NCBI RefSeq assembly: GCF_020171745.1
Contig: NZ_JAIVAH010000018.1
Location: 1-64,000, forward strand
DNA length: 64,000 bases
DNA from: Prescottella equi
GTDB lineage: Bacteria; Actinomycetota; Actinomycetes; Mycobacteriales; Mycobacteriaceae
Direction: 5' to 3'
Below, piece after piece: positions 9,575 through 21,628 of this stretch. The notes beneath the pieces are model-generated. The model saw only the letters and a list, made by a program, of their open reading frames with translations. It was not told the DNA's origin and made no database searches. Every line of letters begins with the position of its first letter. Within the stretch, counting starts at the first letter, position 1. The position numbers and the translations under genes are program-made.

Positions 9575-9694
9575 ACCGACGTGGCGAGCGCCTTGTCGAT
9601 GATCCCGGTGAGCGCCGACACGATCGAGTCGCCGGTGACCACCGTGTACAGCACCGCGCCGAACGCCGCGGCCGCGATGGTGCCGATGGCGTAC
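9571..9694 (-). pseudogene. Flp pilin (DUF4244, Rv3656c-like), C-terminal fragment
   Basis: In frame this reads YAIGTIAAAAFGAVLYTVV and continues to a natural stop after ALATSV. That is the hydrophobic core and tail of an actinobacterial Flp/DUF4244 pilin. Upstream the frame enters the integrated element and meets a TAA within six codons, with no usable start, so the fragment is dead. Joined at the shared GTAC (9691-9694 and 21625-21628), it restores a 67-residue pilin with the N-terminal part at 21625-21708. Confidence 0.92.
9691..9694. other. attL core (GTAC)
   Basis: This is the left junction of the element. Host sequence gatggc precedes GTAC, and element sequence ccgttgcccc follows. Comparison with the right junction shows only GTAC, plus GG one base upstream, in common, the short identity typical of large serine integrases. 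Just inside lies an imperfect inverted repeat GTTTACAT/ATGCAAAC (9707-9714 with 9719-9726). Confidence 0.85.
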
Positions 9695-9726
9695 CCGTTG
9701 CCCCTTGTTTACATCCCAATGCAAAC

Positions 9727-9761
9727 GACCCCCGAGGTGCTACCAACACCGAGCGGGGGTC
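9727..9761 (+). other. Stem-loop at the left end of the element
   Basis: An 8-bp stem (GACCCCCG 9727-9734 with CGGGGGTC 9754-9761) encloses a further 4-bp GGTG/CACC stem. It lies 25 bases before the ATG of the small gene at 9786 and close to attL. It could be a leader structure or block transcription across the attachment site; I cannot tell which. Confidence 0.5.
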
Positions 9762-9785
9762 TAGGACACAACGGAGTACGCCGTT

Positions 9786-10064
9786 ATGAACCGTTCCAGA
9801 AGTGTATCCGCAGCGCGGACACGATCCGAGCACCGCCAAGACCCGCCCTGCCGCGTGTGCGGACATGTCGAGCAACTGCATGCGCCAAACGGCCATCCGT
9901 TCATGCTGAAAACCAGCGACGTCTTCGAAGCGCTGGCCGCCCACCTTGGCGATGACCCGACCGGCGACCGCGCGTTTCGCCTACTGACGGTGCTCGTCAT
10001 CGACAACCCGGGCGTGCTCCTGGACACCATCGCCACCGACAAACGGCTGTACCCGACCAAGTAG
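9786..10064 (+). CDS. Small element protein with CxxC motif
   Basis: This is a 92-residue protein of unknown function, the first gene inside the left end. It has a basic N-terminus, then CRVCGHVEQLHAPNGHPF, a possible Cys2-His zinc site, then a helical C-terminal half (SDVFEALAAHL; FRLLTVLVIDN). GGAG lies 11 bases before the ATG, a loose but possible ribosome site. In the excised circle this gene and the integrase would diverge from attP, so a role in excision (recombination directionality factor) or control is conceivable but unproven. A shorter form could start at the Met before LKTSDVF. Confidence 0.5.
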   Translation: MNRSRSVSAARTRSEHRQDPPCRVCGHVEQLHAPNGHPFMLKTSDVFEALAAHLGDDPTGDRAFRLLTVLVIDNPGVLLDTIATDKRLYPTK

Positions 10065-10079
10065 CGACCCGTTCTCTCA

Positions 10080-10101
10080 GCCACGGACTTAGATCCGTGG
10101 C
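10080..10101 (+). terminator. Hairpin after the left-end gene
   Basis: GCCACGGA (10080-10087) pairs with TCCGTGGC (10094-10101) around a 6-base loop, 15 bases past the stop of the gene at 9786-10064. No T-run follows, so termination is only suggested. Between here and 10423 I see no convincing gene. Confidence 0.5.
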
Positions 10102-10367
10102 CGGGGGTGCGGGCCGTTGGCCTGCTCGGTCGTCTACAGGGTGTCCCGACCTCGCAACCAGACACTCCCGGTGTTCCTAATCCCGTGAACCGGCACGGGC
10201 GCTCTCGCGGATGGTTCCGGCCGGACGCTGTGAGGGTCAGCGCCAGCCTGCCCGCTCTCAGCGGGTGGGCTACTGGTGTTGCCGAGACGCGATATCGGGG
10301 CATGGTTCGTGGGTTGTTCCGGGGCGGGGTTAACGACACCGGCGCCCGTGGGCGCTCCGCTCGGTCC

Positions 10368-10395
10368 GGTGCGGTGCCCCGCGGGGCACCGCACC
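10368..10395. terminator. 28-bp perfect palindrome after the nuclease gene
   Basis: Thirteen bases, GGTGCGGTGCCCC, are followed by GC and then the exact reverse complement, so the whole 28 bp is palindromic. It lies 28 bases beyond the stop of the minus-strand DUF3578-DUF3883 gene and probably acts as a terminator, although no T-run follows. It should also stop element transcripts from reaching the tadE remnant. Confidence 0.55.
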
Positions 10396-10423
10396 AGGTA
10401 AGGCGCCCAGCACGATTCAGCGA

Positions 10424-11509
10424 TTACGGCGTCTTGTATCTGTAGGAGATCGCTCGTAGCGAGCTCTCTTCGATTGACCACGGCTGCGTCACGACCAGTG
10501 TTCCTCCGCTTGCCTTGGGTGCGTCCTGAGAACGGTCCAGATCAATCGAGTGCACGACTGCCAAAGCGTTTGCGGGATATACCGACTGGTGATGCTCCAC
10601 CTCAGCGATCGTGAGAATCACTTCGGCGCCAGCTGAGGTCGTCCCCTTCACTTCGACGCTGACCGTCTCCAACCCACGTTTGGCTTCCAAGTCGAACGAC
10701 TTCTTGGCGCCGACGTCCTTGACCGTGTACCCCTCAGCCTTGAAGTACTCGGTCGCGGCATCAACTGCGTGTCGCTCAATCGCCAACTTCTCTGCAACAG
10801 TGAGGTTGATTCCCTGCCCAGAATCGGTACGAGCCTTGCCTGCCGACTGTCGAGCTGTGACAACTGCATCTTCCACTTCAGGCGGTGGGTCGCCAGGAAC
10901 GTAAATGCTCGCTTCTTCTGCGGCGTAGATCGTTGCCAGCAACCCGCACATCTCCAGAAGGTCGGTTCTCAAGACATCTTCCGACGGGATTGCATCGATC
11001 GGATATGCAATCGCGTCTACGCTGCCCTTCTCATACCCCTTGCCGAGCCGCTGTTTGGCTTGAAGTGCCACCGGCCGTGACAGGTTGTGCCCAGCATCCC
11101 CCAACACGCCCTGGGCCCATTTCACCCGCAAGGCAAGCTGCTCGGGCGGCCTAGGAACGAAATCCCCCTTGTCCAGGTCCCATTCCGATGTTCCCTGGAT
11201 CAGCGAGAGATAGACGGTGTCTCCGTTTGCGCTGAACAGATAGACCAGGTACCACCCGATGGTTGCCGATCGGCTCTTGGTCTTGTCGTAAACGCGGGAC
11301 CAGGGGATCTCGGAGTTATTTCCCGCCCGGCCTTTTCCTTGAACGAGGAAGTCCTCCACCGAAGGAAGCGAGGCGCCTTCAAGTTGCGCGCGAATCCAGG
11401 CCGGAATCTCTTGCTCGACCAGCTTGCTGCGGCGCAGCATGTCGGGGTCCTTCGGGTCGTGTGTGTAGTCCGTCTGGAGGAGCAAGGTCTCCTCAAGCAG
11501 TTCGCGCAT
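10424..11509 (-). CDS. DUF3578 (MrcB-N)-DUF3883 putative restriction nuclease
   Basis: This 361-residue protein has two recognisable parts. Residues 1-190 look like DUF3578, the MrcB-type N-terminal domain found in modification-dependent restriction enzymes (WSRVYDKTKSRSATIGWYLV, then YLSLIQGTSEWD). Residues 240-340 look like DUF3883, an Mrr/PD-(D/E)XK-type nuclease fold: E245 and the helix HAVDAATEYFKAEGY, then D273 in SFDLEAKR and E287/K289 in VEVKGT. The likely role is cleavage of foreign, possibly modified, DNA. No methyltransferase or McrB-type GTPase is adjacent. It sits in a lower-G+C-looking cargo block and diverges from the membrane protein gene at 11562 with 52 bases between them. 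Confidence 0.8.
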   Translation of the reverse strand: MRELLEETLLLQTDYTHDPKDPDMLRRSKLVEQEIPAWIRAQLEGASLPSVEDFLVQGKGRAGNNSEIPWSRVYDKTKSRSATIGWYLVYLFSANGDTVYLSLIQGTSEWDLDKGDFVPRPPEQLALRVKWAQGVLGDAGHNLSRPVALQAKQRLGKGYEKGSVDAIAYPIDAIPSEDVLRTDLLEMCGLLATIYAAEEASIYVPGDPPPEVEDAVVTARQSAGKARTDSGQGINLTVAEKLAIERHAVDAATEYFKAEGYTVKDVGAKKSFDLEAKRGLETVSVEVKGTTSAGAEVILTIAEVEHHQSVYPANALAVVHSIDLDRSQDAPKASGGTLVVTQPWSIEESSLRAISYRYKTP

Positions 11510-11561
11510 AGCAAGTGATCCTGCCAGCTGGAAATCCCGAATAGCACGCTATCTTCGTCCC

Positions 11562-12170
11562 ATGCAGAGCCCCGCTAAGGAAAATGAGGTGTTCGCCGTC
11601 GTCGCCGCCGTCGCGCCGCTCAGCGTTGCGGGCATCGTCGTATGCCTCCTTGCGCTCGACAAGTCCGGGTGGCGCGTCCAGCTCGGGGACCTCGGAACTT
11701 GGGTTGGTGGAATCGGCTCCGCTGCTGCCGCGTTCGCTGCGTTCGTGACCCTGCGGCAGTTGCTTAAGACAAACAGGCAGGAACGCAACGAGATGCGCGA
11801 TCGTGCGCTGCGCCGGGCCAAGCGGGTCACCTTGAAGGTTGATATGAAGGCCGGGCTGTGGACGGCGGTCGTTGCGAACCAATCTGGCCATCCGATCTAT
11901 GACCCTGTGTGGCGCGGATTCGTCTCGATCGATCCGGATACTGAGTCCAGTGAGTTCTTCAAGGAACCCCCTCAGCCAGTCTCCCTCCCCACGGTCATCT
12001 TTAACGAAGGTTCACAGACGCTCTATCAACAGCGGACGGGGGCATTCTTGAACGGCGACAAACCGGAGAAAATGGTTCCCGACATTGAGTTCACAGACGA
12101 CGACGGATACCGATTCAGGCGCAGCCTGACCCCGAACGGAGTCGGCTCGAGTTGGACTCATGTCGACTGA
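11562..12170 (+). CDS. Membrane protein of unknown function (cargo gene 1)
   Basis: This is a 202-residue protein. Two hydrophobic helices (about residues 10-32 and 44-64) are joined by a short polar loop. A basic coiled stretch (RQLLKTNRQERNEMRDRALRR) and a soluble, probably beta-rich C-terminal domain of about 110 residues follow. The ATG has no clear Shine-Dalgarno; TATCTT lies 7 bases upstream, which would suit a leaderless transcript. This two-helix plus soluble-domain layout recurs in many uncharacterised membrane proteins of mobile elements. Codon use includes many AT-ending codons, unlike the flanking host genes. No function can be assigned. Confidence 0.75.
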   Translation: MQSPAKENEVFAVVAAVAPLSVAGIVVCLLALDKSGWRVQLGDLGTWVGGIGSAAAAFAAFVTLRQLLKTNRQERNEMRDRALRRAKRVTLKVDMKAGLWTAVVANQSGHPIYDPVWRGFVSIDPDTESSEFFKEPPQPVSLPTVIFNEGSQTLYQQRTGAFLNGDKPEKMVPDIEFTDDDGYRFRRSLTPNGVGSSWTHVD

Positions 12171-12345
12171 CTCAATGAGGCTGCCGGTGTACCTTCCACT
12201 CAAGAACGGATCTGGAAGACCCGCGTGAACGAGTAAGGTAAGCCGGACGTGCTGATCGCCGACTCGATCACGAATACCCACTCACGGCTGACCGGTCGGC
12301 CCGCATGCCTATGCACACTGCCTTTCCCACAAACGCTAGGAACCC

Positions 12346-13074
12346 ATGTCAACTGAGGTTACGGTCGCGCTCATTGCGGCTAGCGCGGCGGTCGTGGGAC
12401 CGCTCGTTACCTGGATCATCGCCAGGCAGACGCGATCGGACGAGCGCGCTGACATCGTCCGAGATCTTGAGATTCTCAAGAACCTAAATCCTGCGTCGCC
12501 GCAATACGAGAAGCTGGACAAGCGTGTGGCCACGAACGTCGACCGCCTTGTCAATGAACAGGACCGGAGGGACGGTAGCCGTTTCCTGCTGCAGTTGTAC
12601 TTCGCCATGGTCACGACGCTCGCGGCTGGCACAACTGCCAACTGGCTAATCACTCGAAAGTGGCTCCCTGCGGAGCTGTACGGCTACGTCAAGATCATTG
12701 AAGTTCTATCCCCGACACTTACGGCCATCACATTGCTGATGATCCTCGCCATCATGGGCAAGATCATTTGGCTTCTAGCTCGCCTCGCTGGGGTGCATTT
12801 CCAGTTGGTGTGGCACCGCTTTAGGCGGTGGCGTGCCGAACGGAGTCAGCGTCGCGCAGACGCTGCGACCGCGCAAGCCATGAGTCTAGCCCTCACCAGA
12901 GGGGTAACTCGTGAGCAGATTCTCGATACTCTTCAGCGGTCAATCTCACGCTCATCGGACGCTCAGACCCTAGACGACACCATGAAAGAGGAACTCCTCA
13001 CCTCAAGGATGGAAATCTTCGATCGTGTTGCTGCCGAGCACGGCTCACCGAATGGTTCGTCCAGCACTCGGTAG
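12346..13074 (+). CDS. Membrane protein of unknown function (cargo gene 2)
   Basis: This is a 242-residue protein. An N-terminal helix (VALIAASAAVVGPLVTWII) is followed by a charged segment, two further helices (about residues 85-105 and 120-150), and a long Arg-rich cytoplasmic tail. The tail includes HRFRRWRAERSQRRADAATAQAM and a helical C-terminus (REQILDTLQRSI). The ATG at 12346 is preceded by aggaac. It lies 175 bases downstream of cargo gene 1 on the same strand, and the two may form one unit. I do not recognise a family. Low-G+C codon use and its place beside a restriction-like gene suggest acquired cargo. Confidence 0.75.
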   Translation: MSTEVTVALIAASAAVVGPLVTWIIARQTRSDERADIVRDLEILKNLNPASPQYEKLDKRVATNVDRLVNEQDRRDGSRFLLQLYFAMVTTLAAGTTANWLITRKWLPAELYGYVKIIEVLSPTLTAITLLMILAIMGKIIWLLARLAGVHFQLVWHRFRRWRAERSQRRADAATAQAMSLALTRGVTREQILDTLQRSISRSSDAQTLDDTMKEELLTSRMEIFDRVAAEHGSPNGSSSTR

Positions 13075-13170
13075 GACGACTCCGAGGTGGTCATCACCAT
13101 CCGATGGGCGCAATCCCTAGCATCGCAACCAGATCACGGTCGGCCGACTGCCGAGCAGGGGTCCTCATGC

Positions 13171-13539
13171 CTACCTGGGGTGGCCCATAGCGACCCGATG
13201 CATCTCCGCCGGGTTGTTCGACAAGTAGCCCGTGAACCCATTCAGGCGCTCCTGCAGATCGGCCGCAGCGGGGGTTCCGGTCATCGCGTAACGGAACCAA
13301 TCTGCGACCGTGATACCGATCGCTTCCATGATCGCTAGGGTCATCCCGTGGTACTTGACGCCGTGGCGCTGAGGGAGACCTAGCGTCCCCCGAACCCAAT
13401 CATCCAGGCCGGACGCGTATTCATCCAGACCACACAACGGCTTGGATCGGTCGATGACGATTCGGCAGAAACGACTGGGCAGTCGGTCCAAGAGACTGTC
13501 CAGGTTGAATCCGTCATCGGGCCGGCGTCGGATCGTCAC
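13171..13539 (-). CDS. Hypothetical protein coupled to terS
   Basis: This is a 122-residue soluble protein whose GTG start overlaps the terS stop (GTGA), so it is translated together with the terminase small subunit. It contains DRSKPLCGLDEYASGLDDWV and an aromatic helix (ADWFRYAMTG). No known domain is evident and it is far too short for a large terminase. Its coupling suggests a role in packaging or in interfering with a helper phage, but this is inference. It is convergent with cargo gene 2. Confidence 0.65.
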   Translation of the reverse strand: MTIRRRPDDGFNLDSLLDRLPSRFCRIVIDRSKPLCGLDEYASGLDDWVRGTLGLPQRHGVKYHGMTLAIMEAIGITVADWFRYAMTGTPAAADLQERLNGFTGYLSNNPAEMHRVAMGHPR

Positions 13540-13922
13540 TGAACCACCGTGAACCTTGCTGCCTGCGCCGCTCTCCGGCGGGTCTCGGAGATCTTGTCGG
13601 CCTTAGCCTCCTGGGCTTCGTCGGTGTCGGGTAGTCCCAGCTTCCCGAGGAGCTGGGCGAGAAGTCCTCGCTGGAACCGAACCTCGGAGATCAGCGGATG
13701 GATCACAAGCTGTTGCGTGGACCCCCTGGTGGTCGGCGGCTGGCCCTTCTGGGCTGCGTCCAGCTCGGAGATCTTGTCGGTGACCTTGCAGGCCTGGGTC
13801 AGGATCTCGATCTTGTGCGGCTCCGTATCCAGCTCGAACTCATCCAGGGTGGACTTCCAGAGCCGCCGGCCTGCGCCTCCGAGCCCGCGTGGCATCCTCG
13901 GCTTGTGTGCCGTCTGGGCCAT
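13536..13922 (-). CDS. terS: Phage terminase small subunit (P27-like)
   Basis: This 128-residue protein resembles P27-type small terminases. It has a basic PRMPRGLGGAGRRLWKSTL segment, a helical core (EILTQACKVTDKISELDAAQ), then the conserved-style HPLISEVRFQRGLLAQLLGKLGLPD region that usually precedes the TerS C-terminus. TerS recognises pac/cos DNA and recruits the large subunit. The ATG at 13922 is preferred over the GTG at 13943 because AGAGG lies 8 bases ahead of it. There is no large terminase or portal gene anywhere in the element. Satellites of the PICI type carry just such an orphan TerS to redirect a helper phage's packaging. Confidence 0.72.
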   Translation of the reverse strand: MAQTAHKPRMPRGLGGAGRRLWKSTLDEFELDTEPHKIEILTQACKVTDKISELDAAQKGQPPTTRGSTQQLVIHPLISEVRFQRGLLAQLLGKLGLPDTDEAQEAKADKISETRRRAAQAARFTVVQ

Positions 13923-14095
13923 CGAAAACACCTCTTTCTTCACAGTGAATTAGCCCCTGAACTGGGGTTGATCTAAAAATTCCGGAAATGGTTTGCCCAG
14001 CGGAAGGCGCATCCGCATTACGCGCCGGTAGGGAGCACGCGGGCAGGGGGTGCGCCCCCTGGGGGTGAGTGGCCGATGCTGTGTGCCTGCTACCC

Positions 14096-14117
14096 ACTAG
14101 TCGACTACTCGACTAGT
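14096..14117. promoter_or_regulatory. Operator-like inverted repeat
   Basis: ACTAGTCGA (14096-14104), a four-base spacer, then TCGACTAGT (14109-14117) form a perfect 9-bp dyad about 175 bases upstream of terS. A further GTCGAC hexamer follows near 14124. The symmetry and spacing suit a dimeric regulator; no such regulator is identified in the element. Confidence 0.5.
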
Positions 14118-14217
14118 TGACTTGTCGACTGCGGTGATGACGCTAAGGACACCTTCTGGTCGAGGTGCCTACGCCAAGTGCCACGTGCTCACGTGTGCCA
14201 GCGCCCTAGCGGGGGAC

Positions 14218-14294
14218 CTAAGCCCGGTACCTAAGCCCGGTACCTAAGCGGGGACACCGGGCACCTAAGCAGTGAACTAAGCGGGTACCTAAGC
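14218..14294. repeat. Six CTAAGC direct repeats (iteron-like)
   Basis: CTAAGC starts at 14218, 14231, 14244, 14265, 14277 and 14289, at intervals of 13, 13, 21, 12 and 12 bases. Three copies are extended to GGTACCTAAGC (14226-14236, 14239-14249 and 14284-14294). The near-regular spacing on one strand resembles iterons bound by replication initiators. Confidence 0.6.
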
Positions 14295-14412
14295 TCGAAT
14301 CCCGGTGCGAGCTAATCGGACTCGAGGCCAATCGAGGACCTATGCCGGGCTGCCACCCAGAGCAGCCCCGCCCTACCCACTCCGCGGTCAGTGGTCAGCC
14401 CGGGGTGGTTAA

Positions 14413-14441
14413 GGGGACGGGCTTAGCCGTGGCCCGTCCCC
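14413..14441 (-). terminator. Terminator of the 256-residue gene
   Basis: GGGGACGGGC (14413-14422) pairs with GCCCGTCCCC (14432-14441). On the minus strand it lies 12 bases past the stop of the gene at 14454-15224 and is followed by TTAACC. Confidence 0.65.
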
Positions 14442-14453
14442 GATCGGCGATGG

Positions 14454-15224
14454 TCAGAATCGGCCGTTCCCGTGGAACTTCTGAACAGCAGTCACGGGCT
14501 TAGACGCCTCGAGCTTCGCTCGGAGCGTCGCGGCCTCTACCGGGGTGTTGATCTGGAACTTAGTGCTGCGGTGAGCGGCTGCGAAGTACAGGGGGCCGAT
14601 TTGGCGGACCAGCGGGTCCGCGGTCCCCGCACCGTTGTGTGCAGTCAACAACGCACGGAGGTGTCCGTAGCTGTCCGGGGTGAGCACCCGGAGGGCGGGC
14701 TCTGCCTCGTGTCCCGCATAGGCGGGGAACTGAGAGAGTGAGCCCGCCCAAGCATCCACCTTGGCAATGAACTTTGCTGCCTCCGTAGCTTCACCGAACG
14801 CTGCCAGAATCGCGGGGTCACCGGATCGGACGATCGAGTCCGAGTTGAGTTCACGAGGGAGCTTGGCAACCGCTGCGGTGTACTTCGCAGCCTGTGCCTC
14901 GAAACCGGGCGTGAGCTGGCCGATGATCCCCGGCACTGCGGTCCCGGCCTCGTGCAAGATCCGGCGGTTGAGCCGGTTCAAGATCCGGCGCTTAGCCTCG
15001 AATCGGTGCTCCTTAACGCTCAGCTCCCGGGCTACCGCTTCGACCTCGTCGGCTACGTTGGCAGGCTTCAGACGGTCCAGGTCGATCACTGGTTCGTGTC
15101 CGGTCTCGACGTGGGTCAACGCGTCTCGGGTAGCGAGCAAGCCGGAAAGCGGCTTAGGGAGCTTGACGCTAAGGCCCGCCTCCCAATTGGAGACCTGGTT
15201 CACGGTTACGTTGGCGTCGATCAT
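14454..15224 (-). CDS. Element protein of unknown function (256 aa)
   Basis: The start is the ATG at 15224, preceded by AGGAGG at 8 bases, giving MIDANVTVNQVSNWEAGL; the longer frame to 15260 is not needed. The protein is soluble, Ala-rich and mostly helical in the first two thirds (ADEVEAVARELSVKEHRFEA; RRILNRLNRRIL). A histidine-containing C-terminal part follows (YGHLRALLTAHNGAG; PLYFAAAHRSTKFQI). I recognise no domain. It is the largest unknown in the replication/packaging half and sits between the iteron-like repeats and two smaller genes on the same strand. Structural or capsid-directing roles cannot be ruled in or out. Confidence 0.75.
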   Translation of the reverse strand: MIDANVTVNQVSNWEAGLSVKLPKPLSGLLATRDALTHVETGHEPVIDLDRLKPANVADEVEAVARELSVKEHRFEAKRRILNRLNRRILHEAGTAVPGIIGQLTPGFEAQAAKYTAAVAKLPRELNSDSIVRSGDPAILAAFGEATEAAKFIAKVDAWAGSLSQFPAYAGHEAEPALRVLTPDSYGHLRALLTAHNGAGTADPLVRQIGPLYFAAAHRSTKFQINTPVEAATLRAKLEASKPVTAVQKFHGNGRF

Positions 15225-15306
15225 GTGTGTGTTCCTCCTGGAAACGACAACGGACGGCACTGTTGGCCGTCCGGGGTGGTGGTTGTTCGATTGTGCGAGT
15301 GGGTGG

Positions 15307-15696
15307 TTAGCCCGCGAAGTCCTGGCGCCCTGCGATGACGCTTCGGATCAGACCGGCAGCGGAGTCGGTGGCGTGGCCGTTGATGGTCCCGGTGTTTCCT
15401 CCGAGAGCGGCTCGGAGCAGCCCGGCCCCGTTCAGCGGCAGCGGGTTGTCCTTCGGGGTCTCGTCGTCCTCGGGCTTCTGCTTTGGCGAGAACACCCGGA
15501 GGAACTTGTCCCAGTCGTCCTCATCGGCGTAAGGATCGGTCTGGACGTTCTGGCCTGTGATTACGGCCTTACGGACGTCGGTCGACCTAAGCCGAGCGAG
15601 GACGATTCCAAGATCCTGGTCGGTCACGGCTTCGGCCGGGTGGCCGTGGACTGATCGTGCAATCCCGCGCTTGAGTGCGTCTGCGGCACCGTTCAT
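15307..15696 (-). CDS. Element protein of unknown function (129 aa)
   Basis: The ATG at 15696 follows AGGAGA at 6 bases, giving a product starting MNGAADALKRGIARSVHG. The C-terminal half has an acidic linker (QKPEDDETPKDNP) and a short internal repeat: GAGLLRAALGG and AAGLIRSVIAG, two amphipathic helices of the same pattern. No family is recognised. It is 82 bases upstream of the 256-residue gene on the same strand and is probably in one transcript with it. Confidence 0.7.
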   Translation of the reverse strand: MNGAADALKRGIARSVHGHPAEAVTDQDLGIVLARLRSTDVRKAVITGQNVQTDPYADEDDWDKFLRVFSPKQKPEDDETPKDNPLPLNGAGLLRAALGGNTGTINGHATDSAAGLIRSVIAGRQDFAG

Positions 15697-15777
15697 GGTG
15701 TTCTCCTGTGGGTTGGGCACCTCGGGTGCCAGGTGGGTTGTTCTGATCGCGCACAAGCGATCTGGGGCGCCTCTAGG

Positions 15778-16038
15778 TCAGTCGACGCCAGGACCGAACA
15801 CCGAGACGAGTCGTTCGGCCACTGCCTCCGGCGTAGCGGTCGGGTCCGTGCCGAGCGCCATACGGTCGATGTCGACGTGGATTCCTCGTGCTTCCAGCGA
15901 GCGGACCAGTGCGAGCGCCGCGGCTTGCTTGAGCCGATACTTACGGTTGTCGTCTCGCTGACACTCGCGGCAGTAGCCGTTCCGTAAGCGGTCCTTAGCG
16001 GACTCGATCCGGTGCCCGTTGCGGCAATGCGTGGACAT
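15778..16038 (-). CDS. Small zinc-ribbon protein
   Basis: This 86-residue protein begins MSTHCRNGHRIESAKD and has a second pair YCRECQRDDNRKYR, together a Cys/His-Cys-Cys zinc ribbon of the kind common among small actinophage proteins. A helical tail (LALVRSLEARGIHVDID) follows. The ATG is preceded by a strong GGGAGGAGG. It probably binds nucleic acid or protein; the exact role is unknown. A terminator at 16083-16106 separates it from the next zinc-finger gene. Confidence 0.75.
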   Translation of the reverse strand: MSTHCRNGHRIESAKDRLRNGYCRECQRDDNRKYRLKQAAALALVRSLEARGIHVDIDRMALGTDPTATPEAVAERLVSVFGPGVD

Positions 16039-16082
16039 GTGTTGCCTCCTCCCTTCTCGATAGGGGTTGTGGGCAGAAGAAA

Positions 16083-16106
16083 GGCCCAGGCCTGTTGGCC
16101 TGGGCC
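16083..16106 (-). terminator. Intrinsic terminator in the element
   Basis: GGCCCAGGCC (16083-16092) and GGCCTGGGCC (16097-16106) form a perfect 10-bp stem with a 4-base loop. On the minus strand TTTCTTCT follows, a classic intrinsic terminator for the gene at 16215-16673. Confidence 0.85.
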
Positions 16107-16214
16107 GTGATGTGAAGTTGCCGGGGAGCAGCAGCCTTAGGCCCAGCGGCCCAAGGGCTTGCCCCGCTCCATCCCCTTACATCTATGAGTAGTAGTTCGG
16201 AACACAAGCGCTGG

Positions 16215-16673
16215 TCACCAAGTGCCGGCCTTGACTCCCTGACGCACAGGCGGGAGCCCTGCCGCCGCGAACTGTGCGTCTCGAAACTCTTTCCGCTGGG
16301 CGCGGAGTCGGCGCATTCGGCCGGCAGCGCCGTCGTCATGCTTGTCTGCGCGCTTACGGCTGCACTCGATGCAAAACGACGGCCAGCGGCCCGTCTGCGT
16401 ACTTCCCCGCTTGTGTCGCTCGATGTTCCGACGCGTTGTGACGAGTCCGGTGCAATCGGCGCACCGGCCGTAGTAGATCCGGTACCCCCAGAACTGGACG
16501 ACGCAACCTCCGGTCGCGTCGACCGTGTACGTGTAGAACGCGTTTGGGTTCTCGCGTCGCCACTTGTCGACCTTGGTCGGAGTCGCCTTGGGACGTTCAG
16601 GCCGGGTGGGGTCGCCGAACAAGGCTCTTTCGAGTCGTTCGGCGGGGCTCAGGGAACGGTCGTATTTCATCAT
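16215..16673 (-). CDS. Zinc-finger protein of the element
   Basis: This 152-residue protein starts at the ATG at 16673, the second codon pair being ATG ATG, with AAGGAG 7 bases ahead. It has a basic N-terminal half (RLERALFGD; KVDKWRRENPNAFYTYTV). A zinc site made of GRCADCTGLV and FCIECSRKRAD, spaced about 29 residues apart, is followed by an Arg-rich helix (GRMRRLRAQRKEFRDAQF). Such HNH-less Cys4 proteins are common in actinophages. DNA binding is likely; its target is unknown. Confidence 0.7.
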   Translation of the reverse strand: MMKYDRSLSPAERLERALFGDPTRPERPKATPTKVDKWRRENPNAFYTYTVDATGGCVVQFWGYRIYYGRCADCTGLVTTRRNIERHKRGSTQTGRWPSFCIECSRKRADKHDDGAAGRMRRLRAQRKEFRDAQFAAAGLPPVRQGVKAGTW

Positions 16674-17114
16674 GTTGACTTCTCCTTCGGGGTTGGTGGA
16701 CGGCGCCGGGGCAGGCGTCGCCAAACTCCGGGTCCGGCCATCGGACCCGTTGGTGGCTAACGGCTTGGGGGATCTGCGCCTAAGGCAGATCCCTAAGGTT
16801 GGAGGCAGCCCTCAGGGCTGCTAGGACTGCACGGACCGGGAGCCGCTAGGGCTCCCTCTCGTGCCCTTGACCAGAGTCGGCCCTAAGCTGACCCTGCTTT
16901 CGTCTCCTACGGGAGCAGCCCGTAAGGCTGCGACAATCAGTCCTTACCGTGGGGGTAAGGACACGGAGCGAAGCGGAGTGTCCTATAGGGGGATGCAGTG
17001 CAGCGTGCAGCCCCTCTGACCTGCGGTTTTACAGCGCAAGTGCACTAGGTCGTGCAGCGATCGTGCAGCTCTGACCTGCACAAACGCTGAACCGCTGTAC
17101 GGATCGTGCAGCCG
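16674..17114. other. Structured, repeat-rich region next to repA (ori-like)
   Basis: No gene fits here. Four inverted repeats occur in a row: 16805-16821, GGGAGCC/GGCTCCC around 16838-16855, GCAGCC/GGCTGC at 16915-16931, and GTCCTTAC/GTAAGGAC around 16940-16962. Then GTGCAGC occurs five times (16998, 17005, 17052, 17063 and 17106), and the 11-mer CTCTGACCTGC twice (17014-17024 and 17069-17079). The stretch directly abuts the 3' end of the RepA-like gene. It looks like a replication origin or a packaging site; the last repeat copy lies just outside the repA stop. Confidence 0.55.
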
Positions 17115-18104
17115 CTACGGGGCCGGTGTGAACTTGTCGATCAAGGTCCTGATCGGCCCGCCCTCACCGAGATGGTTACGAAACGTGCTCGCGGCACGGG
17201 TCCCGGGGAACTGCTCCGCCAGCCGCTGCGCTGCCTCCACATTGCTCAGGGCTCCGAGGTTCGCGGCAACGTAGAACTGGGCGGCCTCAAGGTTAAGGTC
17301 CAACGCCTCCGCACTGCGGGCGTGCGGCTTCGCGGCGTGCTCGTCGGATTCGAGCCGGTACTCGTAGGCAACCTCTCCCACGCGGGTGCTCTCCACGGTC
17401 ACGTCCTTGTTGACGCCCTGGTTGCCACGCAGGCGGAGCCGACGACGACCCGACAAACCTCCGCCAGTCGTCTCGACGTGGACACCGTGACGCCGCCACG
17501 CCTTGTATGCGGTCGGCCCCATCGGGTCCGTCGATCCCGACTTAGCGGAATGGTGGACGGCCAGCACCGGAATACCGGAACGGATGATTGACGTAAGCGG
17601 CCGGGTGATCTCGCCGGCGTCGGTCTCGTTCAGTGCCCCGCTGAGACCTCCGGTGATGTTGTCGAACACGAGCAACGACGCCTTCTCGTCGGCGGCGACG
17701 TCGCAGTACATCTCCCAGTTCGCCGGGTCGAACGATCCGATCAACAGTCGGTCGTTCGGCATCCCCAGCTCGTCCCGACGATGCGCCCACTCGACTTCGT
17801 CGCCGGGGTCCGTGGTCAACACAACCACCGGACCGTCGTTGATCGGGGTCACCGGCTGCCCCAGAAACTCGGTGTCTCGGCGTGCGATCGCTGCCACGAG
17901 AGCGGCGACGAACGACGTCTTACCCGCTTCGGAGGCCCCGGTGACCATCGTCGCCGTCGATGCGACGTACTCCGGGATGATCCACCGCGAGGCCGCAGCG
18001 TCGGCCAGCACCTCGGAGGACGTCCTGAACCCCGCCAGGAACCGCCCGTAAGCGCGTTCTTCGGCGGGGGTCAGCTCGTAGCCGTCAGTTGTCAGTGCGT
18101 TCAT
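17115..18104 (-). CDS. RepA-like hexameric ATPase/helicase (AAA_25)
   Basis: This 329-residue protein has a RecA-type ATPase core: Walker A GASEAGKTS at residues 56-64, Walker B LLVFDNI at 144-150, and VLAVHHSAKSG near 180-190. These features fit the RepA/AAA_25 group of plasmid and phage replicative helicases (RSF1010 RepA type). The C-terminal 90 residues are helical and may bind DNA or partners. The start is ATG with AAGGA 5 bases ahead. In this element it most likely drives autonomous replication after excision, with the repeat region at 16674-17114 as candidate origin. Confidence 0.8.
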   Translation of the reverse strand: MNALTTDGYELTPAEERAYGRFLAGFRTSSEVLADAAASRWIIPEYVASTATMVTGASEAGKTSFVAALVAAIARRDTEFLGQPVTPINDGPVVVLTTDPGDEVEWAHRRDELGMPNDRLLIGSFDPANWEMYCDVAADEKASLLVFDNITGGLSGALNETDAGEITRPLTSIIRSGIPVLAVHHSAKSGSTDPMGPTAYKAWRRHGVHVETTGGGLSGRRRLRLRGNQGVNKDVTVESTRVGEVAYEYRLESDEHAAKPHARSAEALDLNLEAAQFYVAANLGALSNVEAAQRLAEQFPGTRAASTFRNHLGEGGPIRTLIDKFTPAP

Positions 18105-18350
18105 GTGTTCCTTAGCTCGTTAGGTGGGCAGCGCAAAGCCGCCGCTTGTGTGCGGTGTGCGTGTTTGGGCAGGGGCTACCTGCCTGGAGTTGGTGAAGAT
18201 CGTCAGCGTGCAGGTCCGAGCCGGTAAGGGCTACGGGTACAGCTCGGCTAAGGACTAAGAATGACGCGCGGGCTCGCTTCACTTGTTGCGTACGCACCGG
18301 CAGACCGTCACAGGGCAGATTGCCCTTATCTGTAGCTAAACACATGGTTG

Positions 18351-18379
18351 TTGACATGTCAAATCGACAGGTGTATAAG
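18351..18379 (+). promoter_or_regulatory. Consensus promoter with palindromic -35 region
   Basis: TTGACA (18351-18356), a 17-base spacer and TATAAG (18374-18379) form a near-perfect housekeeping promoter on the plus strand. The -35 box is part of the perfect palindrome TTGACATGTCAA (18351-18362), a likely repressor site. The transcript would run away from repA and antisense to any repA leader starting further right. No plus-strand gene follows, so a small antisense RNA is possible. Confidence 0.5.
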
Positions 18380-18455
18380 CCCCCACCGGTTCGGGGTCCC
18401 CGCTTACGGGACGTTCGTCGCCAGGTGTACCCCCGTATCCCGGGCACACGAAAAA

Positions 18456-18480
18456 GCCCCTCAGAATCGAAATGAGGGGC
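18456..18480 (-). terminator. Terminator of the secreted-protein gene
   Basis: GCCCCTCA (18456-18463) pairs with TGAGGGGC (18473-18480), and the minus strand continues with TTTTT (18451-18455). It lies 16 bases after the stop of the gene at 18496-18978. Confidence 0.85.
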
Positions 18481-18495
18481 AGATTCGCTGTTCTT

Positions 18496-18978
18496 CTATG
18501 ATCCGAACATCAGGGAACCGGCGGGTTCCGGCTTCGGTTCCGGCCCCACCCAAATCTCGTAGGTCACCGGGTCCGACAGCTGCCCGTACTGCCACAGCCA
18601 CCCGCCGTCGCTAGCCAGCTGTCCGCACGTTCCGGAAAGGCTGTAGCGGCCCTGCGGCAAGTTGTCGCGGGTGATCGTGACCGTCTGACCCGCCTGCGGG
18701 TAGATGGTGGCATCGGTGGGGTCCGGCCGAGTGGTCTGCCAGTTGGGGTTCTCGAAGGGCTCGACCGAGCCAGCGATTCCGATTCCCAACGAGCAGGTGC
18801 GCGTGTACCCGGCGACGACATAGGGGCCGTTCGGGTTCGTGATCGTCGCGGTGATCGACGAGTCGTCACTGGTCAGCGTCACTACCGGCGGCAGGGTCGA
18901 GGATGGAGCCTGGGCGCTCGCAACAGCGGGCACCGCCAGCGGGGTCAGCAAAGCTGCGGCAACAACTAGGGATTTCAT
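18496..18978 (-). CDS. Secreted protein carried by the element
   Basis: This 160-residue protein starts at the ATG at 18978 with a Sec signal peptide: MKSLVVAAALLTPLAVPAV then ASAQA, with likely cleavage after ASA. The mature part is Thr/Pro-rich and beta-like, with two cysteines about 54 residues apart (RTCSLGIG and SGTCGQLA) that could form a disulfide. It ends in PEPKPEPAGSLMFGS. A similar signal-peptide-plus-small-beta-domain design is seen in actinobacterial exported proteins. Why a satellite-like element should export a protein is unclear: surface exclusion or receptor masking are possibilities. It has its own terminator and an upstream dyad (19016-19039). Confidence 0.7.
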   Translation of the reverse strand: MKSLVVAAALLTPLAVPAVASAQAPSSTLPPVVTLTSDDSSITATITNPNGPYVVAGYTRTCSLGIGIAGSVEPFENPNWQTTRPDPTDATIYPQAGQTVTITRDNLPQGRYSLSGTCGQLASDGGWLWQYGQLSDPVTYEIWVGPEPKPEPAGSLMFGS

Positions 18979-19015
18979 TGTGGGTTGGTACCACAAACGT
19001 CCGACGTCACGGGCG

Positions 19016-19039
19016 AATGTCGGTTAAGTGGCCGACATT
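19016..19039. promoter_or_regulatory. Inverted repeat upstream of the secreted-protein gene
   Basis: AATGTCGG (19016-19023) and CCGACATT (19032-19039) form a perfect 8-bp dyad with an 8-base spacer, 38-61 bases upstream of the start codon. The position suits an operator. Confidence 0.45.
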
Positions 19040-19137
19040 TCCGCTCCCAATCGCTAAGACCAGTCCGTTCACGACCTAAGTGGACCGACCCGCCGCTAGC
19101 GGGCTCTTAGCTCATCTAAGCCCGACTATGGTGTCCG

Positions 19138-19230
19138 CTACTCGGACGACTCGCCTGGTGAATCCTGCGACCGATACCGGTCGCGGTATATCTCCAGCTC
19201 CCAGAGTAGGAAGTGCTCTCGTTCGTCCAT
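19138..19230 (-). CDS. Possible 30-residue protein
   Basis: An ATG at 19230 opens a 30-codon frame whose product is charged and helical (MDEREHFLLWELEIYRDRY) and ends in SSE. No good ribosome site precedes it. It lies between the HNH gene and the secreted-protein gene, on their strand. The only support is its position and its protein-like composition. Confidence 0.25.
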   Translation of the reverse strand: MDEREHFLLWELEIYRDRYRSQDSPGESSE

Positions 19231-19252
19231 ACTGGCTTAGACGCTGCAAGCC

Positions 19253-19744
19253 TTAGCTCGGTTCCAAGGATGCAGGGGCCTTACTAGTTTGCCGCGGTGA
19301 GGTTTCCTCGCGTGGCCGTAGCTGGGTTAACGAGCGGGATTCTTCCCGCCAGTCGACAACAGAGTTCTTACTCATGGTGCCGTCCGGGTTCCGACGGTTC
19401 CTCGGGACAAACTCGGGCTTACTCGGCTGCTGCGGCTTCTTCGCTTGCTTGCGGCGCCTGCGTCCTCGTCGGCCCTGGAGTAGATGGATCACCTCGAACG
19501 TGGCGATCGTCAGAGATCCGCGCTTGCGCTTGTGGTGCCGGTGGATCAGGTCGTGGCACGTCTTGCATACCGGGACCATGTCTCCGTCTCGCTCGTGGCC
19601 CATACGCTCGTAAGTGTGGTGGTGGAGCTGGATGTCGTCGGTCGATCCGCAGCCTTGGCACTTCCTCCCGTGCTTCGCGTAGTAAGCCAGCTTGCGGGCC
19701 TCCCACTCGGGGGAATGGATGTACTGGTCGTAACCGATGTTCAT
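19253..19744 (-). CDS. HNH endonuclease
   Basis: This 163-residue protein starts at the ATG at 19744 (MNIGYDQYIHSPEWEARK); the upstream in-frame extension is Arg/His-rich and unlikely. The HNH core reads CQGCGSTDDIQLHHHTYERM, then VCKTCHDLIHRHHKR, with two CxxC pairs for structural zinc. The C-terminus is very basic (GRRGRRRRKQAKK). In many HK97-like phages an HNH nuclease beside the terminase is needed for packaging. Here it sits 124 bases downstream of the integrase and about 5 kb from terS. Confidence 0.85.
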   Translation of the reverse strand: MNIGYDQYIHSPEWEARKLAYYAKHGRKCQGCGSTDDIQLHHHTYERMGHERDGDMVPVCKTCHDLIHRHHKRKRGSLTIATFEVIHLLQGRRGRRRRKQAKKPQQPSKPEFVPRNRRNPDGTMSKNSVVDWREESRSLTQLRPREETSPRQTSKAPASLEPS

Positions 19745-19868
19745 GGAATCTCTCTGCACGCCGGGATCTTGGGGTGACCATGTCAGATGGTGCCGACACT
19801 CGGCCTTGGCTCGGTTCCGATGGTGCCGAGTCCTGCCGTGCAGTTCGGCCGGCACCGGCGCCCGGCCG

Positions 19869-21602
19869 TTACTCCCCGGCTTCGCTGGTCGGGATCTCGA
19901 CCCACTCGCCGGTCGGCTGTTCGTAGAACGCCCGTCCGCCGATCCAATACACCTCGACTCCGTCTTGAATCTCGATTCCCTCGACCCCGTGCGTGGTCAT
20001 AGCGGCTTGCAGGTCAGTCGCACCCTTGAGTCGAGCAGTCGGCTTGACCTCGGAGGCCATCTTGTTCAGTTCACCAAGCGTCAGCTTGAGTTGCAGTGCT
20101 TCCCGCTTGTCGAACCGGACCGAGACGCCCATTGACCGCAGGTAAACGTTCCGTTCCTGGACACCCTGGCGCTCCCACCACTCAGCGAAGGTCTCGCCGG
20201 TCGGCTGCCAGGTCCATCCCGCGGGACGGGTCGTGACAGCCACCAGGTCGTCCCTGGTTTTGGCCAAGGCAGCAATCCGGTCATCGAGCGTCGCCCGCTG
20301 GGGAGTCCCAGATCGGTACGGGCCGGAACCGAGTTGTCCCACAAGGTCGGTCAGAGTTTCGTCCACCTCGGCCAGCTCGGCCGCGGTGTCTTCTCCGGCA
20401 TCCCATACCCGAGACAGCCGCTCGGATTCACCCATCAGTCCGAGGACCTGTGACTCCACGAAGTCGTCCAGGTCAGCTTCTGGCACGGTCAGATTCCCAC
20501 ATGTGGCCTTGTACTGGGCAGAGGCGCACCGGTATCGGGACGCTCGACCCTTCCCGCCCTTTAGGCGGTAAGCGGGCCGTCCGCACACGTCGCAAAACAC
20601 CACCTGTAGCAACAGGGCGCTGGACCGCTTGGTGGGCTCCTTGCGGTTCTCGCGGTCGGCCAGCTCGACGCCCAGCCGGTCGAACACCGGCTTGGTAAGG
20701 ATCGGCTCCGACCGCTGCACTGGCGAGCCGTCCCCTCCTCGCACGATCTCCTCGGGACCGAATTGCTTACGGTCCTTGGAATCTCGAAGGACTCGGCCGT
20801 GCGCGTCCGTGATCGGCTCGCGCCTGGTCACGTACCCGAGCAACGTCGGGGAGGTCAGCGCACGCTTGAGGCCGGCAGAGTGCCACCCGTAGCCCTTAGG
20901 CTCTCGGCCCTGGTGGGAGTTGTACCGATCTCGGGCAGTCGGGATGCCGCGCTCGGTCAGGTCGTGGGCGATAGCGCGGAGAGGCTCGCCTGTTAGCACC
21001 CGCTCCACCACCTCTTGGATGACCGGGACGGCTTCGGCGTCGTGCACCAGTCGCCAGCCGTCCGGAGTCTCCACTGGGAGCAGCCCCCAGGGCGGGACGC
21101 CGCCTGTCCACTTCCCAAGCTGGATGTTGTGCCGGTGCGAGGACGTATTCCTCTCGCTGATTGCTTCCAACTCCATCTCCGCGAACGACGCGACGAGTTG
21201 GGCGATCAAACGGCCTACCGAGCTAGACAAGTCGAAGTGCGTCTCCGTGGCAGACACGAGGTTGACCCCGTACTGCTCGGACCAGGCAATCATCTTCCCG
21301 AGATGCCGCACTCGCCTCACGAGTCGGTCCACCCGGAAGAACACAAGTACGTCGAACTCACCGATCCGACCGGGGTTGGCGTCGTCGTCCCCGATCCACT
21401 GAGAGAGCGCAGGACGCTCGAACGGAGAGGTCTTACCTGCGCTTACGTCCAGGTCTTCGGCAACGCCTACGACCTCCCACCCGCGCGCGGCGCAAAGCTG
21501 TTCGCACGCCGCACGCTGACGCTCTGGGCTCGTGGATTCGTCGGTCATGCGAGACAGCCGAACAACGATCAATGCGCGTTTCGGATTGTGCTGGGCGACC
21601 AT
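19869..21602 (-). CDS. int: Large serine recombinase (integrase)
   Basis: This is a 577-residue site-specific integrase. The N-terminal resolvase domain carries the nucleophile Ser17 in VVRLSRMTDESTSPERQ and the arginine-containing LVFFRVDRLVRRVRHL. The recombinase domain follows (GVPPWGLLP...). A zinc ribbon with FCDVCGRPAYR and CASAQYKATC lies around residues 330-365, then a coiled-coil and a C-terminal tail. The start codon lies only 22 bases inside attR. Because the gene runs in the same direction as the tad genes, it may be transcribed by read-through from that operon while integrated. It recombines at a GTAC-centred site in the pilin gene. Confidence 0.95.
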   Translation of the reverse strand: MVAQHNPKRALIVVRLSRMTDESTSPERQRAACEQLCAARGWEVVGVAEDLDVSAGKTSPFERPALSQWIGDDDANPGRIGEFDVLVFFRVDRLVRRVRHLGKMIAWSEQYGVNLVSATETHFDLSSSVGRLIAQLVASFAEMELEAISERNTSSHRHNIQLGKWTGGVPPWGLLPVETPDGWRLVHDAEAVPVIQEVVERVLTGEPLRAIAHDLTERGIPTARDRYNSHQGREPKGYGWHSAGLKRALTSPTLLGYVTRREPITDAHGRVLRDSKDRKQFGPEEIVRGGDGSPVQRSEPILTKPVFDRLGVELADRENRKEPTKRSSALLLQVVFCDVCGRPAYRLKGGKGRASRYRCASAQYKATCGNLTVPEADLDDFVESQVLGLMGESERLSRVWDAGEDTAAELAEVDETLTDLVGQLGSGPYRSGTPQRATLDDRIAALAKTRDDLVAVTTRPAGWTWQPTGETFAEWWERQGVQERNVYLRSMGVSVRFDKREALQLKLTLGELNKMASEVKPTARLKGATDLQAAMTTHGVEGIEIQDGVEVYWIGGRAFYEQPTGEWVEIPTSEAGE

Positions 21603-21624
21603 GCGTGTAATCTACTTCAAAGGG

Positions 21625-21628
21625 GTAC
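21625..21628. other. attR core (GTAC)
   Basis: This is the right junction. Element sequence cttcaaaggg precedes GTAC, and host sequence tcggccgtcgac follows. Joining host left (gatggc), GTAC and host right recreates an uninterrupted attB that encodes TAEYAIG in the pilin frame. Confidence 0.85.

What the first reader, a model, noticed from the sequence alone, without database searches (positions are those of the whole stretch)
9691..21628. Candidate actinobacterial phage satellite with orphan TerS and serine integrase
The element carries integrase, RepA-like ATPase, HNH nuclease and a P27-like terminase small subunit, but no large terminase, portal, capsid, tail or lysis genes. TerS without TerL is a hallmark of PICI-type satellites that hijack a helper phage's packaging. 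Most described PICIs use tyrosine integrases; one with a large serine integrase in a Rhodococcus-like host would be a distinct group. The gene layout looks complete and organised rather than decayed.
Basis: partly seen in the sequence, partly recalled or inferred. Interest (0 to 1): 0.82.

Follow-up and report, generated by a model that had tools for sequence, protein, structure and literature searches.

The report
Capsid-less phage satellite in Prescottella
A 12-kilobase DNA element in a Rhodococcus-like bacterium looks like a parasite of phages: it carries a packaging signal and the protein that reads it but no shell or tail genes of its own, and it may borrow a phage's shell by copying the tip of that phage's scaffold protein.

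Summary
The element is real: 11.93 kb between two GTAC cores (9691-9694, 21625-21628) inside a DUF4244 gene of a tad cluster, in a Prescottella genome. The orphan TerS call holds (PHROG 1496, E 8.9e-20; Pfam sees nothing). The relatives that could be classified are not full prophages but capsid-forming satellites of 10-12 kb, including 11-kb genomes filed as Mycolicibacterium aichiense phages. A profile of these satellites' cos region, built without the window, hits the window once (14066-13972, E 5.1e-8), just upstream of TerS. The same profile hits the genome ends of two Fromanvirus phages, which points to that helper type. The window lacks capsid genes. In their place it has g15307 and g14454; g14454 relatives occur in ten elements of several genera, with TerS nearby in seven. 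g15307 carries PLPLNG, like the tail of Fromanvirus-like scaffolds (LNG in 44 of 45) and unlike the scaffolds of capsid-forming satellites (0 of 24). I infer scaffold mimicry as in SaPI CpmB. Satellite status is well supported; capsid redirection is a testable guess. Candidate actinobacterial satellites with serine integrases are already published, so this is a new variant rather than a new kind.

The parts
9691..9694 (.). attachment-site core GTAC at the 3' half of the split DUF4244 gene
10424..11509 (-). cargo: MrcB_N + NOV_C protein, putative restriction/defence
   Evidence: Pfam 3.6e-31 and 7.6e-6; PADLOC only weak HmaA 0.0042
11562..12170 (+). cargo: putative membrane protein, unknown
   Evidence: no Pfam family over cut-off; PADLOC BnzA 0.0018, weak; membrane nature read by eye
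12346..13074 (+). cargo: putative membrane protein, unknown
   Evidence: no Pfam family over cut-off; membrane nature read by eye
13171..13539 (-). g13171: 122-aa protein directly downstream of TerS; 39% to a protein of L048, weak match in L215
   Evidence: E 0.004 over 28 residues in L215; no similarity to head-tail adaptors by hhalign
13536..13943 (-). terminase small subunit (TerS) without TerL
   Evidence: PHROG 1496 8.9e-20; place in the tree
13972..14066 (-). cos-like packaging site
   Evidence: only nhmmer hit at E<=10 in the 64-kb window, E 5.1e-8; profile of 10 satellites without the window
14213..14297 (.). four copies of a 14-nt repeat like GGTACCTAAGCCCG; candidate TerS-binding (cosB-like) or origin repeats
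   Evidence: function inferred
14454..15224 (-). g14454: predicted all-helical protein, in the place where relatives have the major capsid protein
   Evidence: relatives in nine other elements (first round, 122); model mean pLDDT 81.5
15307..15696 (-). g15307: 129-aa protein (149 aa from the upstream TTG), candidate scaffold mimic
   Evidence: PLPLNG motif
15403..15444 (-). PLPLNGAGLLRAAL motif, like the C-terminal tail of Fromanvirus-like scaffolds
15778..16038 (-). g15778: small HNH/zinc-finger-like protein shared with the 11-kb satellites and L048
   Evidence: PHROG 826 9e-7; 36%, 2.7e-15 to JSForest2; 54% to L048
16215..16724 (-). g16215: protein shared with capsid-forming satellites of the genus and of another genus (49-57%)
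   Evidence: L045, L046, L047, L064
17115..18104 (-). RepA-like AAA_25 ATPase, probable replication protein
   Evidence: Pfam 4.1e-15; relatives at 51% in G099 and 29-34% in G075, G140 and G242
18496..18996 (-). protein with an apparent N-terminal signal sequence (read by eye), unknown
   Evidence: translation; no Pfam family at E<=1, only a weak PHROG hit of unknown function, E 0.3
19253..19855 (-). HNH-like endonuclease
   Evidence: PHROG 8060 3.9e-13 (unknown function), PHROG 8048 HNH 6.5e-9
19869..21602 (-). large serine integrase
21625..21628 (.). attachment-site core GTAC at the 5' half of the split DUF4244 gene

Best explanation
This is an integrated phage satellite. Seen in the sequence: a serine integrase, many of whose relatives also sit in DUF4244, in either orientation; a putative replication ATPase; a TerS that groups with satellites; and a cos-like site just upstream of it. 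Inferred: when a siphophage related to Fromanvirus infects, the element excises, replicates with the help of its AAA_25 protein, and its TerS directs the helper's large terminase to its own cos. Its DNA then fills shells built from the helper's capsid protein, portal and tail. Inferred with less confidence (about 0.35): g15307 binds the helper capsid protein through its PLPLNG motif in place of the helper scaffold, and together with g14454 makes shells that suit a 12-kb genome. The distal cargo (MrcB_N/NOV_C protein and two putative membrane proteins) may protect the host from other phages.
For: Exact ends in one gene. Relatives at the same site that could be classified are satellites. TerS of PHROG 1496, on the side of the tree with 25 of 26 capsid-forming satellites and 0 of 54 prophages. 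Of 80 viral TerS loci kept (of 87), 57 carry TerL, 21 carry capsid or connector genes without TerL, 2 are undecided. The cos profile hits once in the window, E 5.1e-8. It also matches the joined genome ends of HerbertWM (1.2e-15), Elephantoon (2.4e-14) and five 11-kb genomes, one of which was in the training set. LNG in the last 34 residues: 44 of 45 distinct Fromanvirus-like scaffolds, 0 of 24 satellite scaffolds; PLNG in 0 of 325 ORFs of 19 satellite loci. The gene just upstream of g14454 has P.{0,3}LN[GD] in 6 of 10 elements against 3 of 422 background ORFs, a set that includes the window. Precedent: SaPI1 CpmB and the helper scaffold share a C-terminal motif (PMC5644958, abstract and passages).
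Against: No excision, replication or packaging is shown. No helper that infects Prescottella is known: blastn of the window's own cos finds no Fromanvirus end, and its core (CGGCGCGTAA) differs from HerbertWM's (CGGTCGGTTA). Four searches of the host genome found no resident helper, but they do not cover every family, and one had no positive control. The motif is short. About 30 residues follow it in g15307; in L215 it lies near the N-terminus; it is absent upstream of g14454 in L071, L267, L058 and L057, and I loosened the pattern after seeing L070 and L268. TerS of the g14454 elements is not one clade: of 7 rows, 3 lie with the satellites, 2 with prophages (L060, L267) and 2 outside both (L057, L058). 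The cos profile is found in 3 of 10 g14454 elements. g14454 has no known fold match; its role rests on its place. I recognised no repressor or excisionase.
Confidence: 0.75

Rival explanations
1. A decayed capsid-forming satellite: the ancestor had scaffold, capsid, adaptor and stopper like its genus mates and lost them by deletion.
For: Integrase (58-62%) and g16215 (50-57%) match capsid-forming satellites of the same genus, so the two kinds exchange parts.
Against: The place of the missing genes is filled by intact genes that recur in L048 (G035) and Corynebacterium L215. A tblastn panel with five capsid proteins and four scaffolds finds no remnant in the element. hhalign against capsid, scaffold, adaptor, stopper and tape measure finds nothing while its positive controls work.
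Confidence: 0.08
2. A remnant of a full-length prophage.
For: TerS of this family sits beside TerL in most viral loci kept (57 of 80). TerS of two other g14454 elements (L060, L267) falls among prophages.
Against: The window's TerS falls on the satellite side. No integrase relative among 17 actinobacterial loci has a TerL or portal of my panel. Exact ends, full-length integrase.
Confidence: 0.04
3. A satellite that is packaged in full-size helper heads, for example as concatemers; g15307 and g14454 do something else, such as blocking helper packaging or acting with TerS at cos.
For: g14454 has TerS nearby in 7 of 10 elements, and in L070 it stands with HNH and a TerL-like gene. Some SaPIs and proteobacterial PICIs act on TerS (PMC10690885, passages).
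Against: A scaffold-tail-like motif in the gene directly upstream in 6 of 10 elements.
Confidence: 0.35
4. An ordinary defence island carried by a serine integrase that picked up a TerS by chance.
For: MrcB_N/NOV_C cargo.
Against: A cos-like site at the right place and strand and a similar set of genes around TerS in L048 and L215.
Confidence: 0.05

Closest known systems
11-kb 'Mycolicibacterium phages' (OR387110-OR387121; WillG, JSForest2, Maddie1, Alyssa1 and Anya viewed)
   Same: serine integrase (33%), TerS (49-52%), g15778 (36%), cos-like site, size
   Different: they have capsid, adaptor, stopper, tape measure and a scaffold-like gene; the window has none of these
Candidate Mycobacterium PICIs and phiRv1/phiRv2 (PMC10654092, abstract and passages)
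   Same: integrated elements in Mycobacteriales, some with serine integrase, some with terminase and replication genes
   Different: that survey's own definition required a major capsid gene, so an element like this one would be missed by it
SaPI1-type PICIs with CpmA/CpmB (PMC5644958, abstract and passages)
   Same: a small protein that shares a tail motif with the helper scaffold (here by motif only); TerS carried without TerL (for SaPIs, recalled and PMC10690885 passages)
   Different: serine integrase, cos rather than pac (recalled for SaPI1), unrelated genes, no Stl repressor recognised
cfPICIs as summarised in PMC10690885 (passages)
   Same: small element with TerS and HNH
   Different: no capsid, portal, protease, connector or TerL gene here
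V. cholerae PLE (PMC6002521, search listing only)
   Same: large serine recombinase, satellite
   Different: helper, host and genes (recalled, not compared here)

Membership tests
PICI (features as in PMC6092414, abstract and passages) | specific attachment site and own integrase | tested here: met
   GTAC in DUF4244, own serine integrase; whether prophages also use the site was not tested
PICI (features as in PMC6092414, abstract and passages) | no phage structural or lytic genes | tested here: met
   ORFs outside those lists were not scanned
PICI (features as in PMC6092414, abstract and passages) | divergent regulators Stl/Rpr (or AlpA) | tested here: inconclusive
   no such family among the proteins scanned; most small ORFs were only listed, not scanned
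PICI (features as in PMC6092414, abstract and passages) | primase/replication initiator with origin repeats | tested here: inconclusive
   AAA_25 ATPase but no primase family; repeats at 14213-14297 of unknown role
PICI (features as in PMC6092414, abstract and passages) | helper-dependent induction, interference and packaging | not testable with these tools
   needs infection experiments
cfPICI (as in PMC10690885, passages) | own capsid, portal, protease, connectors and TerL | tested here: not met
WillG-type actinobacterial satellites (grouping made here) | integrase, satellite-side TerS, cos-like site upstream of TerS, no TerL | tested here: met
WillG-type actinobacterial satellites (grouping made here) | own scaffold and capsid | tested here: not met
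   hhalign controls
CpmB-like scaffold mimic | tail motif shared with the helper scaffold | tested here: inconclusive
   PLPLNG in g15307 and a profile match over 17 columns, E 0.016 for one comparison; but the window's true helper is unknown and the motif is not at the very end
CpmB-like scaffold mimic | binds helper capsid protein and makes small heads | not testable with these tools
   needs binding assay and electron microscopy

The most novel reading that the evidence does not exclude
Actinobacteria hold an undescribed class of capsid-less satellites of Fromanvirus-like siphophages. They carry g14454 with TerS (the full set g15307/PLNG gene-g14454-cos-TerS-g13171 is seen in the window, L048 and L215), swap serine and tyrosine integrases, and redirect helper capsid assembly with a decoy scaffold that copies the helper's PLNG tail plus a new helical size-determining protein. 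Sister satellites with the same cos and TerS type solved the same problem by carrying their own capsid and scaffold, whose tail no longer has the motif. (Odds lowered from 0.40 on recheck: the whole set is shared by three elements, not by all ten, and TerS of the ten is not one clade.)
Probability: 0.35. Interest if true: 0.8.

Novelty: new variant of a known kind. Interest (0 to 1): 0.66.

Why it matters
The one survey of actinobacterial satellites that I saw used capsid genes as bait (PMC10654092, passages) and so would miss elements like this one. If right, satellites with the same type of cos and TerS exist in two forms, one with its own capsid and one that steals it, so that the switch between cfPICI-like and classical PICI-like lives is open to direct comparison. 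It also names a helper type (Fromanvirus) and a short motif that can be tested at once.

Tried and rejected
Rejected: g14454 as a diverged capsid protein, g15307 as a full scaffold and g13171 as an adaptor (my first idea, note 1). hhalign gave E 0.088-0.71 for all 15 comparisons; two positive controls gave 2.7e-8 and 9.4e-10.

An iterative search for g14454 (rounds 1-3) was polluted by proteins that I read by eye as RuvC, from loci; only its first round is used. Of the 12 genomes over threshold I use the window and two (G642, G723). The RuvC-like rows and the remaining short matches (G581, G536, second G041 row) were dropped; the remaining ones were not examined further.

Scans that found nothing: g14454 in viral contigs, genome contigs (31) and phages; the AAA protein in phages and viral contigs (68); the element in plasmids by megablast (11). 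The literal cos consensus has no match in the window with up to 3 mismatches, although the profile matches. blastn of the window's cos against phages gave 7 records at E 0.4-2. The first scaffold-tail count picked wrong reading frames (29 of 45) and was redone with another choice of ORF (44 of 45).

Literature: ten searches, all used. Searches found 0 papers; others gave those listed. Opened, passages only: PMC10654092, PMC11389934, PMC5644958, PMC10690885, PMC6092414. This says nothing about papers outside the library.
Full report
OBSERVATION. The element runs from GTAC at 9691-9694 to GTAC at 21625-21628, 11.93 kb. Both ends lie in one DUF4244 gene of a tad cluster. Joining the two flanks at GTAC gives ...GCCGAGTACGCCATCGGCACC..., the sequence found uninterrupted in genus mates. 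DUF4244 matches its model over almost full length in 10 of 14 genus genomes; the match is cut short in G000, G001, G005 and G009. The first three hold insertions; G009 was not examined. GC is 0.627 in the element and 0.691 in the flanks. TerS is found by PHROG 1496 (8.9e-20) and by tblastn to phage terminases, not by Pfam.

HOST. G001, a genus mate, has a contig 53 of 32,611 bases. The named contig with the same number and length is Prescottella defluvii Ca11 contig053. By the same reasoning G010 is Rhodococcus sp. OK519 (same genus by the tool) and G103 is Rhodococcus triatomae BKS 15-14 (another genus of the family). The window genome is therefore a Prescottella (Rhodococcus-like), species unknown.

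RELATIVES BY TERS. The best phage matches include twelve records of about 11 kb from M. aichiense. WillG and JSForest2 are annotated with TerS, adaptor, stopper, serine integrase, major capsid and tape measure (JSForest2 also scaffold), and with no TerL, portal, protease or lysis gene; three more that I viewed are alike. Three window genes match them: TerS 49-52%, integrase 33%, g15778 36%. In 251 genomes, 33 have a TerS match. I fetched 20 stretches, chosen by TerS or AAA. Eight of them (L045, L046, L047, L049, L051, L056, L059, L064) carry scaffold and capsid with an integrase match and no TerL match; seven of these (not L051) also carry the adaptor. Of 80 viral TerS loci kept (of 87), 57 have TerL, 21 have capsid or connector genes and no TerL, 2 are undecided (L102, L175). 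In a tree of 92 TerS rows the window lies on a 29-row side with 25 of 26 capsid-forming satellites, 3 of 7 g14454 elements (window, L048, L215), 1 undecided row and 0 of 54 prophages. Support is 93/72 and the tool warns of few columns. L051 and the g14454 elements L057 and L058 fall outside; L060 and L267 fall among prophages.

INTEGRATION. Elements with integrases about 60% identical sit in the same DUF4244 codons in G001, G005 and R. triatomae. The integrase scan gave 21 loci, 17 of them actinobacterial. Eight of the 17 lie at the tad site (L199, L200, L202, L203, L204, L209, L210, L214). Four of the 17 carry scaffold, capsid and TerS (L199-L202); one is a g14454 element (L215). The other twelve show no TerL, portal or capsid of my panel, with at most a weak scaffold (L212, and L214) or TerS match (L203, L204), so their nature is open. 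The integrase lies beside the 5' half in the window, L202 and, by distance to tadC, L203, L210 and L214. It lies beside the 3' half in L046, L199 (the G001 element), L200 (R. triatomae), L204 and L209. Both orientations are expected if the crossover dinucleotide is the palindromic TA of GTAC (inference; in L046 one half reads GTAT). L045 has a 58% integrase but its genome has an uninterrupted DUF4244, so its site differs.

COS. The WillG and JSForest2 genome ends lie just upstream of TerS, and sequence there is conserved among satellites. I built a profile from ten satellites (L046, L049, L056, L064, L103, L105, L107, L108, L141, JSForest2), leaving the window out. It hits the 64-kb window once at E<=10, at 14066-13972 on the TerS strand, E 5.1e-8. 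It hits upstream of TerS in all 21 viral satellites (five of them in the training set; weakest 0.0024) and in seven of the eight fetched ones (not L051). It hits none of the 57 TerL loci at E<=1, many of which begin too close to TerS to hold such a site. The joined ends of JSForest2 (training set), Maddie1, Alyssa1 and Anya score 3e-25 to 2e-20, and WillG 5.7e-5. HerbertWM scores 1.2e-15 and Elephantoon 2.4e-14. Both of these are filed under Fromanvirus ('cluster A' is my recalled label). blastn with a satellite cos lists further mycobacteriophage ends, most at E 0.3. HerbertWM was isolated on M. aichiense ATCC 27280 in Williamsburg, the host species and town of the five 11-kb records that I viewed. 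The adaptor (49-51%), stopper (45%) and part of the tape measure (62% over 350 residues) of WillG and JSForest2 match HerbertWM. So the helper type of that group is most likely Fromanvirus-like. For the window's own host the helper is unknown: blastn of its cos finds no such phage. The host genome gave no match to PF03354, PF04860, PF05065 or HerbertWM TerL (the last without a positive control).

CAPSID-LESS MODULE. Where relatives have scaffold-capsid-TerS-adaptor, the window has g15307-g14454-cos-TerS-g13171. The three new proteins are not related to the satellites' structural proteins by hhalign (controls). The g14454 profile finds G035 (L048), G099 (L061/L071), G242 (L060) and, at 6.2e-5, G381 (L070) among 397 order genomes, besides the window. 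Corynebacterium sp. NML98-0116 follows from the integrase scan (L215, 27%). At weaker scores come L267 (7.3e-9), L268 (2.4e-7), L058 (7.3e-7) and L057 (1.5e-4) in a small set of ORFs (first round, 122). That makes ten elements, of which the weaker five would merit a stricter test. TerS lies on the same strand in 7 of 10: within about 1.3 kb in six, about 3.5 kb away in L048. None was found in L071, L070 or L268. In L215 the order is integrase, primase-like gene, PLNG gene, g14454, cos, HNH, TerS, g13171-like gene. In L048 the order g15307, g14454, replication gene, cos, HNH, TerS, g13171 is kept, but the integrase lies at the other end. The cos profile hits 3 of 10: window, L215 (3.1e-5) and L048 (0.0015). 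No capsid or portal match was found in any of the ten by the tblastn panel. L071 has tape measure and stopper, L070 a TerL-like gene. The window's TerS, AAA and g14454 genes have their best relatives in different genomes (G010, G099, G035), so the element is a mosaic.

SCAFFOLD TAIL. The gene just upstream of g14454 carries P.{0,3}LN[GD] in 6 of 10 elements (window, L048, L060, L215, L070, L268), not in L071, L267, L058 or L057. The background is 3 of 422 ORFs of 50-200 aa from 27 loci that include the window. L070 and L268 were found by g14454 alone, but I widened the pattern after seeing them; with the stricter PLNG it is 4 of 10. In Fromanvirus-like phages found by their capsid gene (47 loci), 44 of 45 distinct scaffolds have LNG in the last 34 residues, 40 of them PLNG. 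In capsid-forming satellites it is 0 of 24 distinct scaffolds, and PLNG occurs in 0 of 325 ORFs picked in 19 such loci. The window motif is PLPLNGAGLLRAAL; HerbertWM ends in PLALNGDGILNAMMELINK. hhalign of g15307 against those scaffolds aligns exactly this stretch, E 0.016 for the single comparison, low probability. In SaPI1, CpmB and the helper scaffold share a C-terminal RIIK motif and compete for the capsid protein (PMC5644958, abstract and passages). I infer the same principle here. Weak points: the motif is short, and its place in the protein varies.

FUNCTION. Shown by sequence: anatomy, att site, TerS type, cos-like site. Inferred: excision, replication by the AAA_25 protein, TerS-cos packaging by helper TerL, use of helper heads and tails, capsid redirection.

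NOVELTY. Candidate Mycobacterium PICIs with serine integrases are published (PMC10654092), as are Streptomyces satellites with their own capsids (PMC10690885; passages of both). A capsid-less actinobacterial class with g14454 is in none of the passages that I saw, nor in the titles and abstract starts listed by my ten searches. I rate it a new variant of a known kind.

Noticed in passing
L003, L004, L192, L193, L194 (OR387121, OR387116, OR387118, OR387110, OR387111): About 11-kb records filed as complete Mycolicibacterium phages look like satellites: annotated TerS, adaptor, stopper, capsid, tape measure and serine integrase, but no TerL, portal, protease or lysis gene.
   Followed up: partly
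L003:8075-10030 and homologues in L049, L061, L106, L107, L110-L120, L122: Many of the capsid-forming satellites carry their own tape measure (PHROG 305, 3.9e-190), 651 aa in WillG against 807 aa in HerbertWM, as if they set a shorter tail.
   Followed up: partly
window 9575-9697 and 21433-21708 (DUF4244 halves); L046, L199, L200, L202, L204, L209: DUF4244 in tad clusters is an insertion site used across several genera in both orientations.
   Followed up: yes
L070:9563-12790: A g14454 element that also carries HNH, a small protein in the TerS place and a TerL-like gene (25% to Krypton555); its integrase looks tyrosine-type by eye.
   Followed up: no
window 14213-14297: Four copies of a 14-nt repeat like GGTACCTAAGCCCG between g14454 and the cos-like site; possible TerS-binding or origin repeats.
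   Followed up: no
window 10424-11509; L215:19155-20324: The distal cargo slot holds a MrcB_N/NOV_C protein in the window and a MmeI_N protein in Corynebacterium, both restriction-like.
   Followed up: no
L062 (G075): An element with AAA (30%) and serine integrase relatives and a cos-profile hit (E 0.00092) but no TerS match.
   Followed up: no
G000:C20:64662-65105: The only other Resolvase-family match of the host genome.
   Followed up: no
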